From IMG/VR virus record IMGVR_UViG_3300049846_000857, positions 1 through 40,815 of that record: a stretch of DNA of 40,815 bases. One strand, 5' to 3'. This DNA is from a virus. Made by a program: the position numbers and the translations under genes. The notes under the pieces are model-generated. The model had not been told where the DNA came from and made no database searches. It worked only from the letters and a program-made list of their open reading frames with translations. Positions 7,027-36,138 of the stretch are shown piece by piece. Within the stretch, counting starts at the first letter, position 1; each line of letters begins with the position of its first letter.

Positions 7027-7059
7027 TCTTAAATTATCTTAAATTTTAAGCTATTCGTG

Positions 7060-7815
7060 ATGGGCCTATTCAAGTCCGATATTAAGAAAGCTCTTATAAT
7101 CCCAGACTGTCATATCCCTTATCAAGACGAGAGATCATATAATCTAATGCTTAAGGTAGCAAAAGATGTAAAGCCTGATGAGATTGTTATCTTAGGTGAT
7201 TTCGCTGACTTTTATTCAATCAATCAGCATGGCCCAAAAGATCCACAACTCGTACAGCTACTTTTATATGAGGTAGATGCGGTAAATGAAAAGATGGATG
7301 AACTTGATAAGCTGTTTCCTAAAGCCTCTAAAGTGTTTATAGAGGGTAACCATGAGCACCGACTTGCAAGATATATAAAACATAAAGCACTAGAACTATT
7401 CTCAATGTTTAGAGTCGAGGACTTATTTAAAATAAAAGATAGAGGCTGGAGGTTTATTCCTTATGATGCTAATCAAAAATATAACATTCTTAATTCACAT
7501 CTCATCGCAAGGCACTGTCCAATTGGAAGCTCTTCAAAAACAACAGTTAATAGGGCGATGGCATCCGTAATTCATGGACACACTCACAGAGTAGAAGAGA
7601 ATCAAATTGTTGCACTTGATGGGAAGGTTTACAGAGGTATTTCAAATGGAACTCTTGCCGACATTAAATCACCTGTAATGGATTACATACAAAATCATGC
7701 TCAATGGTGTCATGCTTTCTCGATATGTCATGTGCTTCCAAATAAAAACTTCTTTAACCAAATAGTTCACATAATTGATTACCAGTGTATGTATAATGGA
7801 AAGCTTTATAAATGA
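7060..7815 (+). CDS. calcineurin-like metallophosphoesterase
   Basis: The 251-aa protein shows the complete metal-binding motif set of the family: DCH at residues 16-18, GDFAD at 46-50, GNHEH near 97, a single His in ARHCP and GHTH near 171. Such enzymes hydrolyse phosphomonoesters, phosphodiesters or nucleotides using two metal ions. The substrate cannot be read from the sequence; nucleic-acid end processing or nucleotide signalling are both possible. The gene lies between the terminase small subunit and an HExxH peptidase. Start is ATG 7060, or GTG 7057 in the same frame. Confidence 0.85.
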   Translation: MGLFKSDIKKALIIPDCHIPYQDERSYNLMLKVAKDVKPDEIVILGDFADFYSINQHGPKDPQLVQLLLYEVDAVNEKMDELDKLFPKASKVFIEGNHEHRLARYIKHKALELFSMFRVEDLFKIKDRGWRFIPYDANQKYNILNSHLIARHCPIGSSSKTTVNRAMASVIHGHTHRVEENQIVALDGKVYRGISNGTLADIKSPVMDYIQNHAQWCHAFSICHVLPNKNFFNQIVHIIDYQCMYNGKLYK

Positions 7816-23824: not shown

Positions 23825-25951
23825 ATGCCAGCAACGATATTTAGTGGAACAAAGGTAAAAGCTTTAAAATCAACCTTAAGCCTTAATGATGGGGCTGATG
23901 TAATTTCATCAACTGTTGATCCGACAAGTGTGGCTACGGCTGGAAACCCTGGCAGCATTTTGTTGAATACAACAAATGGAAATATGTATAGAAAACAAGA
24001 TTCTGGATCTTCAACTAATTGGGCTTTAATGTCTAGTGGTGGGGATGCTGGGATTAATTATATTACAAATGGTTCAGCTGAAGCCAATACGACTGGCTGG
24101 ACAACCTACGCTGATGCTGCTGGTACTCGTCCTGTTGATGGGACTGGGGGCTCACCTACAGTTACATTTACAAGATCAACTTCTTCACCTCTTCGCGGAA
24201 TCGGTTCATTTTTAATTACAAAAGATGCAGCAAATAGACAAGGCGAGGGCGCTAGTTATGATTTCACTATTAACTCGGCTGATAAAGCCCAAGTTTTAGA
24301 GGTAAGTCTTGATTATATTGTTTCAAGTGGAACATTCTCTGCTGGAAGTTCATCTTCTGATTCTGACTTAATTGTTTACTTATATGATGTAACTAATGCT
24401 TCTTTAATTGAGCCAAGTGTTTTTAAATTATTTTCAAATTCTTCAACTGTTGCTGGAAAATATGTTGGTCACTTTCAAACAAGTGCATCTTCAACTTCAT
24501 ATAGATTAATTTTCCATGTAGCTACAACATCAGCATCAGCTTATGTATTAAAAGTTGATAATGTTAAAGTTGGACCACAAGATGTTTCTTATGGCTCTAT
24601 TATAGCAGAGCTTGACCAACAAACTCTAACTGTTGGAGCTGTTACAACTGCTCCTACTAAAGGAACAATAACTGTTGATACAGTTAAGGCAACAAGAGTG
24701 GGCTCTTTAGCTAAAATAAATGTGAATTATATTCAAACTTCTGCTGGAGGTGCTGCTGGAAGTGGTGTTTATTTATTTTCTCTTCCAAATGGATTATCCG
24801 CTGACTCAGCAAAATTAAACTTTAGTGGCGCAGCTGCGGTTGATGCAAATAACAATGCTGGATATATAGGATCTGGATATGTTTCTCAATCAGGTGGAAA
24901 TGCTGCAAGTGTTCACGCTTATATGTATTCAGCCACTCAATATTTTTTAAGATTTGATGCTGGATATATGGATACAACTGGGACAAGTGTCTCAGCTGTT
25001 TCAGGCGATCCATTTAGTTCCTCTACAATAAATTTTGCACAAAATATTGCAATTGCGCTGAATTTAACAGTGCCTATAGCTGGATGGGGATCAAATGGAA
25101 TAATTGGCGTAGACGCTGAAACAAGAGTGGTGTCTATGAGAGCTGTAAATGCCTCCACTCAAGCTTTAACTGCTGACACAACCAGAATAACAGCGACAGC
25201 AGCTCAAGATAGTCATAGTGGCTGGGACGGGGATGAATATATTTTACCTATCTCTGGAGATTATTTTGTTAGCTTAACTTGTGCTGATAATGCTGGAGCC
25301 ACAGTAGGATTTGATCTTTATATTGGCGGTTCTTTGTATGGAAGGGTTTTAACTAGCTATGCTACCTCTGGCGGCCAAGGAAGCTCTGGGGGAATATTGG
25401 TTCCAAGAAGAACGGCTGGCGAAAGATTTGATCTCAGGTGTAATTCAACTATTACAGCAAGACCATGCACTATCTCAGTTTATAGACTTGGCGGTCCAGC
25501 TGCGGTTGCAGTAAGTGAAGAAGTTGTTGCTCATTATGGATCAAGTTCAACAGCTCTTGGTACTAGCTTTGGAACAATTGTTCACACTTCAAAAGAATAC
25601 GATACTCATGGATCTTATAACACCTCAACTGGTGTTTTTACTTGCCCAATAAGAGGGAGATATATGGTAAATTGTAATTTTGAAGCAAGTGGAAGCCCAA
25701 GCTCTACAGCTGCAAACTCAGAGGTTGCAATGAGGCTTTATAAAAATAATTCTGCTTATAAAAATATGGGACAATTTTTATATCAAGTGACTGGGGTTGG
25801 ATTAAATTCAACAATCACTGGATTTGCAGAGGCAGAATGTAATGCTGGGGATACATTAGAGGTAAGAATGGTTAGAAATGCGAATATTGGAGCAACAAGC
25901 CCAAGCGCATCGAATTTAAACAATTATGTTGTCTTCAGAAAGATGATTTAA
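23825..25951 (+). CDS. receptor-binding/tail spike-like protein with CBM-like and C1q-like domains
   Basis: The 708-aa protein begins with a short adaptor region (to about residue 75). Next is a jelly-roll, carbohydrate-binding-module-like domain (NYITNGSAEANTTGWTTYAD to about residue 250, ending in LKVDNVKVGP). Middle beta domains follow, then two TNF/C1q-like domains; the last has THGSYNTSTGVFTCPIRGRY and the aromatic C-terminal strand NNYVVFRKMI. This architecture is found in phage receptor-binding proteins and suggests sugar or surface recognition. No glycosidase motif is evident. Confidence 0.65.
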   Translation: MPATIFSGTKVKALKSTLSLNDGADVISSTVDPTSVATAGNPGSILLNTTNGNMYRKQDSGSSTNWALMSSGGDAGINYITNGSAEANTTGWTTYADAAGTRPVDGTGGSPTVTFTRSTSSPLRGIGSFLITKDAANRQGEGASYDFTINSADKAQVLEVSLDYIVSSGTFSAGSSSSDSDLIVYLYDVTNASLIEPSVFKLFSNSSTVAGKYVGHFQTSASSTSYRLIFHVATTSASAYVLKVDNVKVGPQDVSYGSIIAELDQQTLTVGAVTTAPTKGTITVDTVKATRVGSLAKINVNYIQTSAGGAAGSGVYLFSLPNGLSADSAKLNFSGAAAVDANNNAGYIGSGYVSQSGGNAASVHAYMYSATQYFLRFDAGYMDTTGTSVSAVSGDPFSSSTINFAQNIAIALNLTVPIAGWGSNGIIGVDAETRVVSMRAVNASTQALTADTTRITATAAQDSHSGWDGDEYILPISGDYFVSLTCADNAGATVGFDLYIGGSLYGRVLTSYATSGGQGSSGGILVPRRTAGERFDLRCNSTITARPCTISVYRLGGPAAVAVSEEVVAHYGSSSTALGTSFGTIVHTSKEYDTHGSYNTSTGVFTCPIRGRYMVNCNFEASGSPSSTAANSEVAMRLYKNNSAYKNMGQFLYQVTGVGLNSTITGFAEAECNAGDTLEVRMVRNANIGATSPSASNLNNYVVFRKMI

Positions 25952-27932: not shown

Positions 27933-30416
27933 GTGTCGTATATTTTATCAAAGGAATTTAAAAACCACTTTGGTCTTGATTTAAAGTCATCTGATATTAA
28001 TAGGGCAGATGAATTTTCATCTGGAATTCTAAACGCACAATACGCAAAAAATGGTGATATAGAAAAAAGAAGAGGGTATAAGGGTGCGGCTTCTTCAAAT
28101 GGCGGTTATGGTCTATTTGTTTATAATAGAACAAATCCTACAACTGGTCTTTTAGAGCCTGAGCTTTTAACAGTATCTAATAAAGTATCTAAATTATCTG
28201 AGAGCACGCTCACTGTCACTTATGTTGGGGCAGATCCAACAGCTTTAATTTCTATTTATTTTGACTCAGACGATGAGGAATATAAATGTGAAATTACTGA
28301 AGGAACAAGTGTTGTTTTAACATCAAGCCTTGGTATTGGCTTTGATGAGGCATCAATTAAAACTGTAGATACACTAAGATCTGAAATAGATGCTCTAGCT
28401 AACTTTACAGCAACAGTTAGTGGTGTAAACACAATGCCTGCGGCATTTCTTGATTTAGTTAGAAATCATTCTTTAGTTACAAGTGGGGCGTTAGCGGTAA
28501 AAGCAAGAAGCTGGTCTGATGTGAATACTCCCGTTGCAAATCCGTTAAGTGGCTCTGAAACAAATAAAAATTTAACTGATTTTGAAAATGTGACATCAGC
28601 TGAATTAAATAATCTTATCTTTTTTTCAAATGGATATGATTATTTACTTAAGTATGATGGACAAAATCTTTATAGAGCAGGGCTTCCTCAAGGCGGCTCC
28701 CCTGGCGATTCTGCTGGAGGGGCTGGGGCCTTAACAGGAACCTATACACATAAAACTCAGTATGTTCAAATTGATGCTGTTGGAAATGTTAATGAAGGGA
28801 ATATTGGAAATGCTTCAAACTCTGTTTCGCCTGTTGCTCAAAGTATAAATATATCTATTGATAATATTGTGGCTTCAAGTGGATTTAATACAAATTGCGC
28901 AATAGTGGCTGGCGCTCAGGTTGCTGTTAATACTATCACTGTTGACGATGGCTCTGGAGGCTCTCATACAATGAAGGTTGGGGACAAGGCATATTTTTAT
29001 GATTCTATAAGCCCAGGCTATGTAACAAGAAATATCACTGCTATCACTGCTACTACAATTACAATAGATGGGGCCGCTGTTACTGTTGCTGATAATGCAG
29101 TTATTTCAAATGATTTAAGAATTGCAGTTTATAGAAATAAAAATGGTGGGACTCTTTATTATTTAGTAGCAGAAATACCAAATAATTCATTTACCGCTAT
29201 TCAGACTTATAATGATAATATAACAGATGCAAATCTTGGGGCTCAATTTATAACTCCATTATCTGATAGATCTCTTCCTCCAAAAGGAAAGTATGTTGCA
29301 TCTTTTAATGGACAACTTGTAATTTCAGGTCAAATTGAATCGCCAAATGAAATATTCTGGTCTGATATTGATTCGCCTGAATACTTTCCAGCATTCGGAA
29401 CAAATCAGGCTTTAGTAGAAAATGATATTGGCGATAAGATAACTGGTATCAAACAAAACAACGAATCTTTTGCTATATTTAAAAATAAATCAATTCATAT
29501 TTTAACAGGGGATCTTTCAAATTCAAATATAAGAATAGATGTATTAACTAAAGATATTGGCTGTGCTGCTCATGCTACAATTCAAGAGGTGAGAGGAAAT
29601 TTATATTTCTTATCAGATCAAGGAGTTTATTCATTAACATCAGGACAATTGCCTCAAGAATTATCTTCTAATGTAGAGCCATTGTTTAAACCAATTGTTT
29701 CAACAGATGCAGAGGTTTTAGTTTTAAAAAGAGCAATTGCTCTTAATCATAGAGATAATGAGCAATATATATGTTTTATTCCAGCTGAAACCACAACATA
29801 TTCTGAAAGGCATCCTAATTCTAATTCTATTTTAGTTGTCGAAGATTATTACAGGAATGCTTGGCTTAAGTGGGATAATATTAATATGCAAGGCGGTTCT
29901 ACTATATTTAATGATTTAATGTATTTTGTTGAAAGAAGAGCATCTAGTTTTAACTCAAGTGTGGATCATATTTTATATAAAGAAATGAATTCAAATGATT
30001 CTTGGGATTATCAAGATAACTCTGTCGCTATTGATTGGGAATACGACACAAATTGGTATAGCTTTAGTGAACCAAGTGTATTTAAAAAAGCAATTAGGCT
30101 TAAGGCTTATAGCTTAAATGATACAAATAACAATGATTTTACTTGTGATGTTTTAAGTGAATTTAATTATGTTAAAGATGTTACTAAACATGATTTTTCT
30201 TTAGACTTTAGTAATGGTGGGGAAGGGTATGGTCTTGAATCTTATGGCGACAGCCCTTATGGAAGCCCAGTTGAGCCAAATACAAAACACAAACTTAATG
30301 GAAAATTTAGATCAATTCGTTTTAAATACATGAATTCAGAGGCTCAACAAAATGTTAAGCTCTCTGGATGGGAATTGGAGATTGCAAGCCCTTATAAACT
30401 TGCAATTAAAGAATAA
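27933..30416 (+). CDS. tail nozzle-like protein (P22 gp10/T7 gp12 type)
   Basis: The 827-aa protein starts at GTG 27933. It has an all-beta architecture with repeated strands and the KGKYVASFNGQLVISGQIES and NESFAIFKNKSIHILTGDLS stretches, followed by AHATIQEVRGNLYFLSDQGV, which are typical of the beta-propeller of podovirus tail nozzle proteins. It would form the hexameric tube through which DNA leaves. Its position after the adaptor gene fits. Confidence 0.7.
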   Translation: MSYILSKEFKNHFGLDLKSSDINRADEFSSGILNAQYAKNGDIEKRRGYKGAASSNGGYGLFVYNRTNPTTGLLEPELLTVSNKVSKLSESTLTVTYVGADPTALISIYFDSDDEEYKCEITEGTSVVLTSSLGIGFDEASIKTVDTLRSEIDALANFTATVSGVNTMPAAFLDLVRNHSLVTSGALAVKARSWSDVNTPVANPLSGSETNKNLTDFENVTSAELNNLIFFSNGYDYLLKYDGQNLYRAGLPQGGSPGDSAGGAGALTGTYTHKTQYVQIDAVGNVNEGNIGNASNSVSPVAQSINISIDNIVASSGFNTNCAIVAGAQVAVNTITVDDGSGGSHTMKVGDKAYFYDSISPGYVTRNITAITATTITIDGAAVTVADNAVISNDLRIAVYRNKNGGTLYYLVAEIPNNSFTAIQTYNDNITDANLGAQFITPLSDRSLPPKGKYVASFNGQLVISGQIESPNEIFWSDIDSPEYFPAFGTNQALVENDIGDKITGIKQNNESFAIFKNKSIHILTGDLSNSNIRIDVLTKDIGCAAHATIQEVRGNLYFLSDQGVYSLTSGQLPQELSSNVEPLFKPIVSTDAEVLVLKRAIALNHRDNEQYICFIPAETTTYSERHPNSNSILVVEDYYRNAWLKWDNINMQGGSTIFNDLMYFVERRASSFNSSVDHILYKEMNSNDSWDYQDNSVAIDWEYDTNWYSFSEPSVFKKAIRLKAYSLNDTNNNDFTCDVLSEFNYVKDVTKHDFSLDFSNGGEGYGLESYGDSPYGSPVEPNTKHKLNGKFRSIRFKYMNSEAQQNVKLSGWELEIASPYKLAIKE

Positions 30417-32110: not shown

Positions 32111-33244
32111 ATGGCTGAAAAAAAGAAAATTAAAAATTTATTTGCTCAAGCTGAACAAGAAAAGTCTCCAATGTCAGGCTCTCTTGGAGATATTTCAAAA
32201 GCATTAATGTCTCAAGCGTCTGAAGGGGTGGCTCAAGAAGAATCGGCTAAGACTGAAGATCCAAATATTCAAGCAATGATGAAAAGAATGGCAGCCGCTA
32301 AAACAATGCAAGATAAGCTTTATGGATCAAAAGATGAATCAAGTGGATTGCTTGAGGCTGGGCTTCTTGCTGCTTTACCAACTGTTTTAGGATCTGCTCT
32401 TGGTGGGCCGAGCGGGGCAATGGCTGGTGTTCAGGCTGGTCAGGCTGGTCTTGGTCAATACCAAAAAGGAATTGAAGCAGAGAAAGCTGCTGAAGCTGAG
32501 AGAGCAAAACAATTAATGCAGTTATCGGGTGAACTAGAAAAGGCAGAGGCTACAAAAGCAGAGTCGCAACTTCAATCTAAAAAATTAGAACAAGAATCAC
32601 AATTTAGACAAAAACAATTAGGTCTTCAAGAGGGGGAGCTTGCTCTTAAAAGAAAAGAACAAGAAAGAAAAGCAACAGCTGGAGTAGAGTTACCAGAAGA
32701 TAAAAAAGAAATTGTTTCAGGCTTAGCTAAAAAGAATGCAGTCAAGATTTCAATAGCAAATCAAATAGATCAAACATTAAATGTTTTAGATAATCCTAAA
32801 ATAGATGAGGATCAAAAGATTGCAGCTGGCAGAACCTTATTAAAAACACTTAACTCTTCAGAGGGTGCCGACGCTATTGGTGTTGAAGAGGCAAAAAGAC
32901 TAGGTAGTTTTTTAGAATTTAAAGTATTTAATTTAACTCAGCCTGGATCTTTTGTTGGAAGAGATGTGGATCAATTTGGTGAGCAAGCAAGAATTCAATC
33001 ACAAAGTTTAAAACAATCAATTATGGCAAATCAAGCACAGATAGATGCACTTAAATCAGGACAACCTCTACAGCTTGCACAGACTCCTCAAAGAGGGATT
33101 CCACAAGTTGACGGCGGCGAAGGAACTGCGGTTGCAGCTCCACTTCCAGCGCCGCATCCTCAAGATCAAAAAGCTATTGAGTGGGCAAAAGCAAATCCAA
33201 AAGATCCAAGAGCAAAAGCAATACTTCAAAGGTTTGGTTTATAA
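32111..33244 (+). CDS. putative DNA ejection protein 2 (gp20-like)
   Basis: The 377-aa protein is Gln/Glu/Lys/Ala-rich, with a Gly/Ala-rich hydrophobic patch (AALPTVLGSALGGPSGAMAG) near residue 90, long charged coiled coils (residues about 115-200) and an Ala/Pro/Gln-rich C-terminal tail ending in PKDPRAKAILQRFGL. It is likely an ejection protein that forms a complex with its neighbours. The stop overlaps the next start (TAATGG). Confidence 0.6.
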   Translation: MAEKKKIKNLFAQAEQEKSPMSGSLGDISKALMSQASEGVAQEESAKTEDPNIQAMMKRMAAAKTMQDKLYGSKDESSGLLEAGLLAALPTVLGSALGGPSGAMAGVQAGQAGLGQYQKGIEAEKAAEAERAKQLMQLSGELEKAEATKAESQLQSKKLEQESQFRQKQLGLQEGELALKRKEQERKATAGVELPEDKKEIVSGLAKKNAVKISIANQIDQTLNVLDNPKIDEDQKIAAGRTLLKTLNSSEGADAIGVEEAKRLGSFLEFKVFNLTQPGSFVGRDVDQFGEQARIQSQSLKQSIMANQAQIDALKSGQPLQLAQTPQRGIPQVDGGEGTAVAAPLPAPHPQDQKAIEWAKANPKDPRAKAILQRFGL

Positions 33245-36138
33245 TGGCTAAAGAGAAGAAAAAACAAGAAGAGGCATTTGATCCTGATAAGTATTTATCT
33301 GAAACAAAAGAATCTTTTGATCCAGACAAGTATTTATCTGAAACAACAGCTCCAGAGATTTCAAAAACTGAAGCAAGACTTACAGGTCTTGGGCAAGGTG
33401 CTACTCTTGGTTATCTTCCAGAAATAACAGCTTTAATTGAAAAGGCTGCAAAGCCTGTTTATGAATATGCAACAGATAGTGTTGTACCAGAATCAAGTTT
33501 TGAAGAGAGTAAAAAATATTATCAAAAAGAATATGCTAAGGCAAAAGAGGCACAACCAAGTGCTTATGCACAAGGAGAGCTTGCTTCTATTTTATCACCT
33601 CTTCCTGGCGGGGCAATTGTTAAAGCTGCTTCCAAATTAGGCAAAGGAATCAAAGGAACTTCTATTGCTGCAAAGGCAGCTCGTAGCGCTGTAAGTGGTG
33701 CAGCTGGGGGTGCTGCTTTTGGTGCATTAACAAATATATCACCTGAAGCACAAGAAGAAGGAATTACTGGTCAAATAAAAGAAAGAGCAAAAGGGGCCTT
33801 AACTGGAGCTGCCTTCGGTGGGGGTTTGGGCGCTGGAATTCCAGGAGCATTATCTGCTATCGGTTCAATTGCCAAAAAAGGCTCTGAAGTTACAAAAAAA
33901 GCTCTTAAAAAAGCTGGCTCGGTGTTCGGCGGTGTTAATGAAAAAAATATTGAAAGGTATTTAGCTAATCCAGATAGAATTGATAATGCTAAATCAGTTG
34001 AAGATCTAAAAGAAATTGTTGATGAAGCAGTTTCTAAAGTTAAAGAAGATGTTTTAAATGCTGAATTAACAAAAAATCAAGCAAGTGCGTCTTTAGATCT
34101 TGCAACAAAACAAATTCAAGATGCCGCTAAAAGAAAAAAACTTGATGTTAGCGAAGCATTAAGGGATTCAAAAGCAAGCTTAAATGAAGCATTTAGAATT
34201 AAAAAACAAGAAGTTAAAGATGCAAGAATTCCTCATGGTTTTCAAAATGAAGTGGCTAGTGCATTAGAGGATTTAAAAGGTTTAGTAATTAAAGAATCAG
34301 ACGAATCATATAAAATATTAGAAGCTGCAAAAAAGAATATCAATATTAACAAAGTAAAAGAAGAGGTTGCACGGCAAAGATCTGCTCTTAGATTAGGAGA
34401 GGGACAGGACATAACTGCATATCATGGGACCTTTGAAAATTTTAAACCCTCTGATATTCGTCCATCAAAAAAGGGCACATTTGGAAAAGGCATATATTTA
34501 AGCACCAATAAGAAAGATGTATTTAATTATGGAGATAAGGTCTTAGAATATAAATTTAAAAAACCTAAATTGTTTGATTTAACAAGTCCAAATTCGGAGG
34601 AAACCAAAAAATTTGCAGAAAAATATGGGTTTGATTTATCAAAGAAAAAATTCAAAGACAATTGGTCTGAAATGATGAGTTCAGTTAGAGAAAAATTTCC
34701 AGATGAAGATCTTACTGGTTCAAGTGCCGTTGATAAAATACATGATCTTATGAAAAAAGAAGGATTTGATGGAATAAAATTTTCACAAAATTCCTCTAAT
34801 GATAATATGGTTTTATTTGATGAAGGAAGTCTTTCTGCTAAAAGCATGGCTGGCGAACTTTTTGGATCAAGCGCTAAAGAAGCTGACGCAAGACTTTTAG
34901 AGGTTGAAAATTTACTTAATAAAATGCCAGAAGAAGCAAGTCCTTCTGTTATAAAAAACATAATCCAAAGACTTGATAAAGAAGTAAATTATGGGCGTGG
35001 CTATGGTGAATTTGGCGATGAGTCTTCAAATGCTTTGAAATCTGTAAGACGTTCTTTTGATACTGCCATTAAAGAAGAAATACCAGAATATGCGGCTAAA
35101 ATGGAGTCTTTAGCTCCTAAAACAGAACTACTAAGCGAAGCATCAAAGAAGTTTGGAACTAATGAAAAAATTATTAGTAAATTATCAAGTATTGATAAAC
35201 CTAATCTTCAATTAGAAAGAGATCTTTTAGGAAGGCTTGCTGCTAATACAAAAAGAGATCTAATGACTCCAATTGAAAGCATGATGGCTTTAAAGCAAAA
35301 ATATGCTGGACCTTTAGGCGAAAAGGCCATGAGAAAAGAACTTCCAGAATATCAAGACTATATAAAGCAAGTAATTGAATCTAGGAAGCTTAGACCAGAC
35401 CTAGCTCAAGAAGCACAAGATCAGCTTATAAAAGGACTTCCAGAACAACAAAGATTAATTCAGGCTGAATCTGCGTTGGCTGCTCAAGAGGCTAAATACG
35501 CTCCTATAAAGAGAATCACACCTGAATCAAGTGAGGCTAAAATTAAATCACTCATGTCTGAAAGATCTATTGAAAATAAAAAGGCAATGGAAGCTCTATC
35601 TAACTTAACAGACATGGATTTTAACGCAATGATTCAGGATGCTTCTGTTAAAGCAGCTTTTGAAAAGGGTGCAACACAAGGATCAAGGAATGTTAATATG
35701 TGGACACTTCTTGTTTCAGGCGGTTTAACTGGGGGCGGCGAGGCTGCGGTTGCAGGCGCTATGATTGGAGCAGCTGTTGATAAATATGGTCCAGCCATGA
35801 CAAAACAAGTGTTAAAAGGAATATCCAAGATTCAAGGAATGCCTACAGTACAAAAAATAAGGCAAATGAATATTCCTCCAGAGGTTCAAGAAGAGTTAAT
35901 TAATCAATTAAGGGATTTCTCAATTAGATATAGAGAAATTAAAAATCTTCCAGTCAATCCACAAGACATAGAACAAACTAAAAAAGACGTACAATCGTCT
36001 AGAATGAATACTATAGAAAAGGCAAAAAACATAAATTCTCTTAACAAAGAAGGTGTGTTGTTAGATCCTAATAAGGTTATGGAAGATGGATCGGAATCCA
36101 TCGAAGATATATTAAAAAAGAAAGCAAAGGGGGCCTAA
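33244..36138 (+). CDS. large ejection protein with embedded ADP-ribosyltransferase-like domain
   Basis: This 964-aa protein begins with two copies of FDPDKYLSET and a Gly/Ala-rich hydrophobic region (residues about 110-220), then helical segments to about 385. An ADP-ribosyltransferase-like domain follows (about 390-535): AYHGTFENF with His394, GKGIYLST with Tyr418, a distal GFDGIKF and VLFDEGS with Glu527. This is the motif order of the ART-PolyVal group (H-Y-E type). Then come long helices, a hydrophobic Gly/Ala segment (about 818-850) and a charged tail. It is third in the ejection-protein cluster, so it would enter the cell with the DNA. ATG at 33244; a GTG at 33181 lies inside the previous gene. 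Confidence 0.75.
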   Translation: MAKEKKKQEEAFDPDKYLSETKESFDPDKYLSETTAPEISKTEARLTGLGQGATLGYLPEITALIEKAAKPVYEYATDSVVPESSFEESKKYYQKEYAKAKEAQPSAYAQGELASILSPLPGGAIVKAASKLGKGIKGTSIAAKAARSAVSGAAGGAAFGALTNISPEAQEEGITGQIKERAKGALTGAAFGGGLGAGIPGALSAIGSIAKKGSEVTKKALKKAGSVFGGVNEKNIERYLANPDRIDNAKSVEDLKEIVDEAVSKVKEDVLNAELTKNQASASLDLATKQIQDAAKRKKLDVSEALRDSKASLNEAFRIKKQEVKDARIPHGFQNEVASALEDLKGLVIKESDESYKILEAAKKNININKVKEEVARQRSALRLGEGQDITAYHGTFENFKPSDIRPSKKGTFGKGIYLSTNKKDVFNYGDKVLEYKFKKPKLFDLTSPNSEETKKFAEKYGFDLSKKKFKDNWSEMMSSVREKFPDEDLTGSSAVDKIHDLMKKEGFDGIKFSQNSSNDNMVLFDEGSLSAKSMAGELFGSSAKEADARLLEVENLLNKMPEEASPSVIKNIIQRLDKEVNYGRGYGEFGDESSNALKSVRRSFDTAIKEEIPEYAAKMESLAPKTELLSEASKKFGTNEKIISKLSSIDKPNLQLERDLLGRLAANTKRDLMTPIESMMALKQKYAGPLGEKAMRKELPEYQDYIKQVIESRKLRPDLAQEAQDQLIKGLPEQQRLIQAESALAAQEAKYAPIKRITPESSEAKIKSLMSERSIENKKAMEALSNLTDMDFNAMIQDASVKAAFEKGATQGSRNVNMWTLLVSGGLTGGGEAAVAGAMIGAAVDKYGPAMTKQVLKGISKIQGMPTVQKIRQMNIPPEVQEELINQLRDFSIRYREIKNLPVNPQDIEQTKKDVQSSRMNTIEKAKNINSLNKEGVLLDPNKVMEDGSESIEDILKKKAKGA

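What the first reader, a model, noticed from the sequence alone, without database searches (positions are those of the whole stretch)
34405..34850. ADP-ribosyltransferase-like domain embedded in a DNA-ejection-type virion protein
Seen: within the 964-aa third protein of the ejection cluster, residues about 390-535 carry AYHGTFENF (His394), GKGIYLST (Tyr418), GFDGIKF and VLFDEGS (Glu527), flanked by long helices and hydrophobic Gly/Ala segments. Known: this is the order of H-Y-E type ADP-ribosyltransferases, including the ART-PolyVal group; T4 injects its Alt ART with its DNA to modify host RNA polymerase. Inference: this phage may deliver a host-modifying enzyme as an internal part of its injection machine rather than as a separate protein, acting before any phage gene is expressed. 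The fused architecture in a P22-like ejection protein is the part I consider potentially undescribed.
Basis: partly seen in the sequence, partly recalled or inferred. Interest (0 to 1): 0.88.

Follow-up and report, generated by a model that had tools for sequence, protein, structure and literature searches.

The report
ADP-ribosyltransferase domain inside phage ejection protein
A short-tailed phage carries, inserted into one of the proteins it probably pushes into its host ahead of its DNA, a domain folded like NAD-using host-modifying enzymes; the domain is real, but the idea and several examples were already known and one of its three expected catalytic residues is missing.

Summary
Residues 385-535 of the 964-aa protein (window 33244-36138) are a genuine H-Y-type ADP-ribosyltransferase domain of the ART-PolyVal family. 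Evidence: Pfam PF18760 (E 2e-6, just under the curated cut-off); a profile from 121 independent viral domains (E 6e-13; 500 shuffles score at most 2.5 bits); an AlphaFold model (pLDDT 78.5, pTM 0.74) matching diphtheria toxin, MbcT, ParT and PARPs. His394, Tyr418 and the second nicotinamide tyrosine, Tyr429, are kept. The proposed Glu527 is wrong: the catalytic-Glu position is Asn521, and Glu527 sits where relatives have proline. The carrier is the last gene of a podoviral ejection cluster (SU10-type adaptor, tube B, three ejection proteins). In all six relatives found, including a Silvanigrella phage and a Bdellovibrionaceae-MAG contig, the homologous 495-780-aa protein lacks the domain, so it is a clean ~196-aa insert. 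The claimed novelty is weak: ART-PolyVal was defined from injected phage proteins, Vibrio phage 1.182.O has the same arrangement, the solved cyanophage A4 pre-ejectosome contains the fold, and 12 of 116 IMG/VR ART loci sit behind a tube-B gene. It is probably an injected host modifier; activity is untested, and the missing Glu makes it uncertain.

The parts
33244..36138 (+). Third ejection protein (964 aa), mostly helical, carrying the ART insert; ATG overlaps the stop of the preceding gene (TAATG)
   Evidence: ORF; start context; homologues in six relatives; model
34396..34848 (+). ART-PolyVal-type domain, residues 385-535
   Evidence: Pfam; independent profile; AlphaFold fold
34357..34944 (+). 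Insert of about 196 aa (residues 372-567) relative to the six ART-less homologues
   Evidence: Profile of six homologues aligns on both sides with this stretch unmatched; alignment
34423..34425 (+). His394, first residue of the H-Y-x signature
34495..34497 (+). Tyr418, second residue of the signature
34528..34530 (+). Tyr429, 11 residues after Tyr418, as for the two nicotinamide-stacking tyrosines of PARP1 and diphtheria toxin; Tyr in 107 of 121 relatives (not part of the search motif)
   Evidence: PARP1/diphtheria toxin spacing from general knowledge
34804..34806 (+). Asn521, at the catalytic-Glu position (Glu or Gln in most relatives)
   Evidence: start of modelled strand 521-524
34822..34824 (+).
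33280..33738 (+). N-terminal part (residues 13-165) shared with ART-less homologues
   Evidence: E 1.7e-9 to L160, 2e-10 to the Silvanigrella phage protein
34918..35157 (+). Part after the ART (residues 559-638) shared with the ART-less homologue in L160
32111..33244 (+). Second ejection protein (377 aa); strongest marker of the phage group
   Evidence: E 2e-43 to 2e-20 in L160-L164 and CP017838
31229..32107 (+). First ejection protein (292 aa) by position and composition
   Evidence: position after tube B; no family hit
27933..30416 (+). Tail tube B / Hc3-like head-closure protein preceding the ejection genes
   Evidence: phrog_3287 and phrog_578; homologues in L163, L084, CP017838
26992..27930 (+). 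SU10-type adaptor (PF24175)
   Evidence: E 1.4e-10

Best explanation
The third ejection protein of a podovirus has acquired an ART-PolyVal domain as an internal insert between long helices. The protein is packaged in the head, leaves ahead of the DNA and helps build the channel through the cell envelope; the ART domain is thereby delivered into or next to the host cytoplasm, where it uses NAD to attach ADP-ribose to a host component (protein or nucleic acid) before any phage gene is expressed, as T4 Alt does as a separate protein. Shown here: domain, fold, NAD-pocket residues, insertion relative to ART-less homologues, gene context. Inferred: presence in the virion, ejection, catalysis and target. 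With Asn in place of the catalytic Glu, the reaction would be at most mono-ADP-ribosylation, possibly slow or substrate-assisted.
For: PF18760; profile of 121 viral ARTs E 6e-13; ART fold with diphtheria toxin Z 8.5, MbcT 8.0, ParT 7.8, PARPs 6.5-6.8; predicted structures named 'PolyVal ADP-ribosyltransferase' among the best in the viral library; His394, Tyr418, Phe400, Tyr429 and Asp509 conserved, of which Phe400 and Tyr429 were not in the search motif. Context: SU10 adaptor and tube B upstream, the sequence mark of an ejectosome podovirus (PMC10386132). Insert. Recurrence of ARTs behind tube B; Vibrio 1.182.O; cyanophage A4.
Against: Catalytic Glu replaced by Asn521. Pfam score below the curated cut-off. 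Virion presence, ejection and activity not tested. The six other members of the phage group do without the domain, so it is accessory.
Confidence: 0.6

Rival explanations
1. The domain is a decayed ART kept as a structural or ligand-binding module of the ejection machine: it folds, may bind NAD, but no longer transfers ADP-ribose.
For: Asn521 at the Glu position. In the solved cyanophage A4 pre-ejectosome an ART-like domain is an ordered part of the assembly; its sequence also lacks Glu (DTTLVINP) and the second tyrosine, so ejectosome ARTs can lose catalytic residues.
Against: His394, Tyr418 and Tyr429, the nicotinamide-binding set, are intact, and ART-less homologues show that the machine does not need the module. 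Some H-Y-x ARTs without Glu, such as PARP10, transfer mono-ADP-ribose (general knowledge).
Confidence: 0.27
2. The domain acts on the phage itself or on host defence at entry: it modifies the incoming DNA, the packaging or channel proteins, or a NAD-linked immune component, rather than reprogramming host transcription. (A variant of the best explanation that differs in target.)
For: Protection of packaging components and countering of NAD-linked immunity are raised for virion-associated ARTs in PMC9503650. Relatives of this fold include DNA-modifying ARTs (same paper).
Against: Nothing in the sequence points to a target; no macrodomain or NAD-defence gene was found among the window proteins scanned.
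Confidence: 0.3
3. The large protein is a polyvalent effector or tape-measure-like protein, not a component of the channel.
For: ART-PolyVal domains mostly lie in very long multidomain proteins, and there is no direct biochemical evidence for the window protein.
Against: Its homologues are 495-780 aa, show no catalytic domain and keep the slot directly after ejection protein 2; phrog_342, an internal virion protein family, matches residues 130-388.
Confidence: 0.1

Closest known systems
Vibrio phage 1.182.O (MG592548) protein AUR93058
   Same: Podovirus; ART-PolyVal domain (E 3e-17) behind Gly/Ala-rich segments, in a protein of the internal-virion-protein cluster after tube B and T7 gp14; homologous to ART-less internal virion proteins of Pelagibacter and Pseudomonas phages
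   Different: Different ejection protein family (BLASTP finds only the ART, E 0.1); Gln at the Glu position and Phe at the second residue; annotated only as a coil-containing protein
Cyanophage A4 (Anabaena phage A-4L) gp27, PDB 9k3a chain B
   Same: Pre-ejectosome protein with an ART-like domain at residues 1419-1611, the best structural match to the window model (Z 10.4, 151 aligned, rmsd 5.1); YHGT and GSGTYFS motifs
   Different: 1717 aa; sequence similarity only E 0.05 by profile; lacks the second tyrosine; catalytic position Thr
Roseovarius Plymouth podovirus 1 vRNAP (CBX87992), prototype of ART-PolyVal
   Same: ART domain (PF18760 E 1e-8) in a virion protein of a type ejected into the host (PMC5512222; PMC12633501)
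   Different: Fused to an RNA polymerase and a metallopeptidase in 3760 aa; Glu kept at the catalytic position but Phe at the second
Pseudomonas phage F116 gp60 and other polyvalent proteins
   Same: PF18760 E 1e-39, H-Y-E in the same order
   Different: 1649-aa multidomain polyvalent protein, not a homologue of the rest of the window protein
T4 Alt
   Same: Virion-packaged ART injected with the DNA (as described in PMC5512222)
   Different: R-S-E clade, separate protein
Silvanigrella phage CP017838, IMG/VR L160-L163, Bdellovibrionaceae contig L164
   Same: Homologous ejection cluster, same gene order
   Different: Third ejection protein 495-780 aa without an ART

Membership tests
ART-PolyVal (PF18760) | Match to the family profile | tested here: inconclusive
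   E 2.1e-6 and 29 bits against a cut-off of 31.2; a profile of 121 viral members gives E 6e-13
ART-PolyVal (PF18760) | ART fold | tested here: met
   AlphaFold pLDDT 78.5, pTM 0.74; diphtheria toxin, MbcT, ParT, PARP matches; PolyVal ARTs at the top of BFVD
ART-PolyVal (PF18760) | His in strand 1 and Tyr in strand 2 | tested here: met
   His394, Tyr418
ART-PolyVal (PF18760) | Acidic or Gln residue at the third catalytic position (H-Y-[EDQ]) | tested here: not met
   Asn521 in that column; Asp520 is adjacent and might substitute. Many relatives also deviate there, so this bears on activity more than on descent
ART-PolyVal (PF18760) | ADP-ribosyl transfer | not testable with these tools
   needs an NAD assay
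Podoviral ejection (internal virion) protein | Gene in the ejection cluster after tube B | tested here: met
Podoviral ejection (internal virion) protein | Homology to known internal virion proteins | tested here: inconclusive
   phrog_342 E 1e-8 over residues 130-388, largely a Gly/Ala-rich region; phrog_5880 of unknown function E 3.5e-13
Podoviral ejection (internal virion) protein | Presence in the virion and release into the host | not testable with these tools
   no proteomics available
Polyvalent protein (large injected multidomain protein) | Two or more disparate catalytic domains in one protein | tested here: not met
   Only the ART is detected; the rest is helical

The most novel reading that the evidence does not exclude
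An ejection-channel protein of phages infecting Bdellovibrionota-type (partly predatory) hosts carries an active ART with an unusual H-Y-N (or H-Y-D520) active site, which modifies a host target from the entry site while still part of the channel.
Probability: 0.2. Interest if true: 0.68.

Novelty: new member of a known kind. Interest (0 to 1): 0.45.

Why it matters
It gives a clean natural comparison, one ejection protein with and without an enzyme insert in the same phage group, that could show what an ejected ART adds to infection. The match to the cyanophage A4 pre-ejectosome means that how such a domain is packed in the virion can be examined in an existing structure. It also suggests that ejection proteins are a recurrent carrier of ARTs in podoviruses, beyond the giant polyvalent proteins.

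Tried and rejected
Direct protein searches for relatives with the whole protein or the ART domain alone found nothing in IMG/VR, phages or plasmids; the low-scoring phage rows were chance. The portal as a probe reached only distant phages. A six-sequence ART alignment was too diverse for a scan, so DNA patterns of the two motifs were used instead. A first scan with the second ejection protein chose poor peptides and failed; the trimmed version worked. Genome hit L165 (Defluviimonas) was rejected as chance: short match (E 1e-5) and no ejection genes around it. Glu527 as catalytic residue rejected. The full-length model is low in confidence outside the ART and some helices (pTM 0.36) and was not used for channel topology. 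The cyanophage A4 paper (Hou et al. 2025, PNAS, known here only from reference lists) is not held, so whether its authors named the domain an ART is unknown.

Full report
What is there. The window is a whole IMG/VR record of 40,815 bases, AT-rich (32-41% G+C). The gene in question encodes 964 aa from an ATG at 33244 that overlaps the stop of the gene before it (TAATG).

Is it an ART? Pfam scores ART-PolyVal PF18760 at E 2.1e-6 for the excised region, 29 bits against a cut-off of 31.2, with DUF3990 weaker. Because this is just below the curated threshold I built independent evidence. A profile from these, without the window, finds residues 379-535 at E 6e-13; the best of 500 shuffles of the same protein scores 2.5 bits. 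His and Tyr are conserved by construction, since they were in the search pattern. Phe400 (121 of 122) and Tyr429 (107 of 121 Tyr) were not in it and are conserved too. Tyr418 and Tyr429 lie 11 residues apart, as do the two nicotinamide-stacking tyrosines of PARP1 and diphtheria toxin (general knowledge).

Fold. AlphaFold with 79 sequences gives mean pLDDT 78.5 and pTM 0.74. Against the PDB the best matches are cyanophage A4 pre-ejectosome chain B (Z 10.4, 151 residues), diphtheria toxin (8.5), MbcT (8.0), ParT (7.8) and PARPs (6.5-6.8). Individual Z values around 8 would be weak alone, but nearly every listed match is an ART, and in the viral library many of the best named matches are ART-PolyVal proteins. 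In a full-length model the ART strands are the only strands in the protein, with pLDDT near 90, between long helices. The rest of that model is of low confidence.

The third catalytic residue. Aligned with relatives, the strand that carries the catalytic Glu reads NMVLFDEGSL in the window, EFVVFSPEQV in F116, QTAVFNPEQI in Vibrio 1.182.O and EIVLYKPGL in a Yersinia phage. The Glu column holds Asn521 in the window and E 35, Q 13, D 4 of 80 in relatives; the Glu527 column is Pro in 39 of 73. PARP4 aligns its EFVVYKTNQVK in the same register. The modelled strand is 521-524 and Glu527 is beyond it. The alignment of this region is less certain than that of the first two motifs.

The carrier protein. 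Upstream lie a portal and a major head protein, an SU10-type adaptor (PF24175 E 1.4e-10) and a tube B / Hc3-like protein, then a small gene and three ejection-type proteins. The literature describes ejectosome podoviruses as recognisable by tube B followed by the ejection genes (PMC10386132). The second ejection protein is the best handle on relatives: it is found in a Silvanigrella phage (CP017838), in four IMG/VR contigs (L160-L163) and in a contig of a Bdellovibrionaceae MAG (L164). In all six the next gene is a large protein of 495-780 aa without an ART; five of the six show direct pairwise homology to the window protein and L161 falls in by position and alignment. A profile of these six aligns with the window protein at E 1.6e-22 from residue 11 to 641, leaving residues 372-567 unmatched: a 196-aa insert that contains the ART. 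Direct homology on both sides is seen with L160 (residues 13-165, 559-638, 758-850) and on the N side with the Silvanigrella phage (E 2e-10). A further stretch at about 640-757 is also longer in the window than in L160.

How it probably works. T7 gp16-type ejection proteins refold across the envelope and place a large part in the host cytoplasm (PMC8954989). An ART between helices of such a protein would arrive before the DNA. Shown: domain, fold, pocket residues, insertion, context. Inferred: packaging, ejection, catalysis, target. The missing Glu leaves two live readings, a mono-ADP-ribosylating enzyme or a decayed module; I favour some activity because the nicotinamide-binding residues are kept and because relatives do without the domain, which argues against a purely structural need.

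What is known. ART-PolyVal was defined from injected multidomain phage proteins, with an N4-type vRNAP as prototype (PMC5512222; PF18760 in that protein), and N4 vRNAP is itself an ejection protein (PMC12633501). The same group reports ARTs fused to MuF and other head-associated proteins (PMC9503650). Vibrio phage 1.182.O has an ART in the internal-virion-protein cluster, in a protein homologous to ART-less internal virion proteins of other podoviruses. Cyanophage A4 gp27, solved in its pre-ejectosome, has YHGT and GSGTYFS in the matching region, though its sequence match is marginal (E 0.05). In 12 of the 116 IMG/VR ART loci a tube-B gene lies upstream on the same strand; this is a lower bound, as loci are truncated. 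So an ART in a podoviral ejection protein is recurrent, not undescribed in kind.

Verdict. A real and well-placed domain with one misassigned residue; a new member of a known kind. Its best use is as a with-and-without comparison within one phage group.

Noticed in passing
window 32111-36138; L002, L164: Relatives of the ejection cluster come from a phage of Silvanigrella and a contig in a Bdellovibrionaceae MAG, suggesting that this phage group infects Bdellovibrionota (predatory bacteria and kin).
   Followed up: partly
window 23825-25951: Tail protein with a C1q-like domain (PF00386 E 1.9e-5); a homologue lies just downstream of the ejection genes in L164, so tail genes have moved relative to the cluster.
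   Followed up: no
L159:20116-25269 (cyanophage A-4L gp27): The solved pre-ejectosome protein contains an ART-like domain with YHGT and GxGxY motifs that Pfam does not detect.
   Followed up: partly
L002, CP017838: The public record has no annotation although it holds a portal, adaptor, tube B and ejection cluster.
   Followed up: no
window 7057-7815: Calcineurin-like phosphoesterase (PF00149 E 7e-8) between replication and packaging genes.
   Followed up: no
L084:4084-8547: A contig with a tube B related to the window's carries an ART in an open frame of at least 1488 aa after three intervening genes, the closest ART-bearing cluster by tube B.
   Followed up: partly
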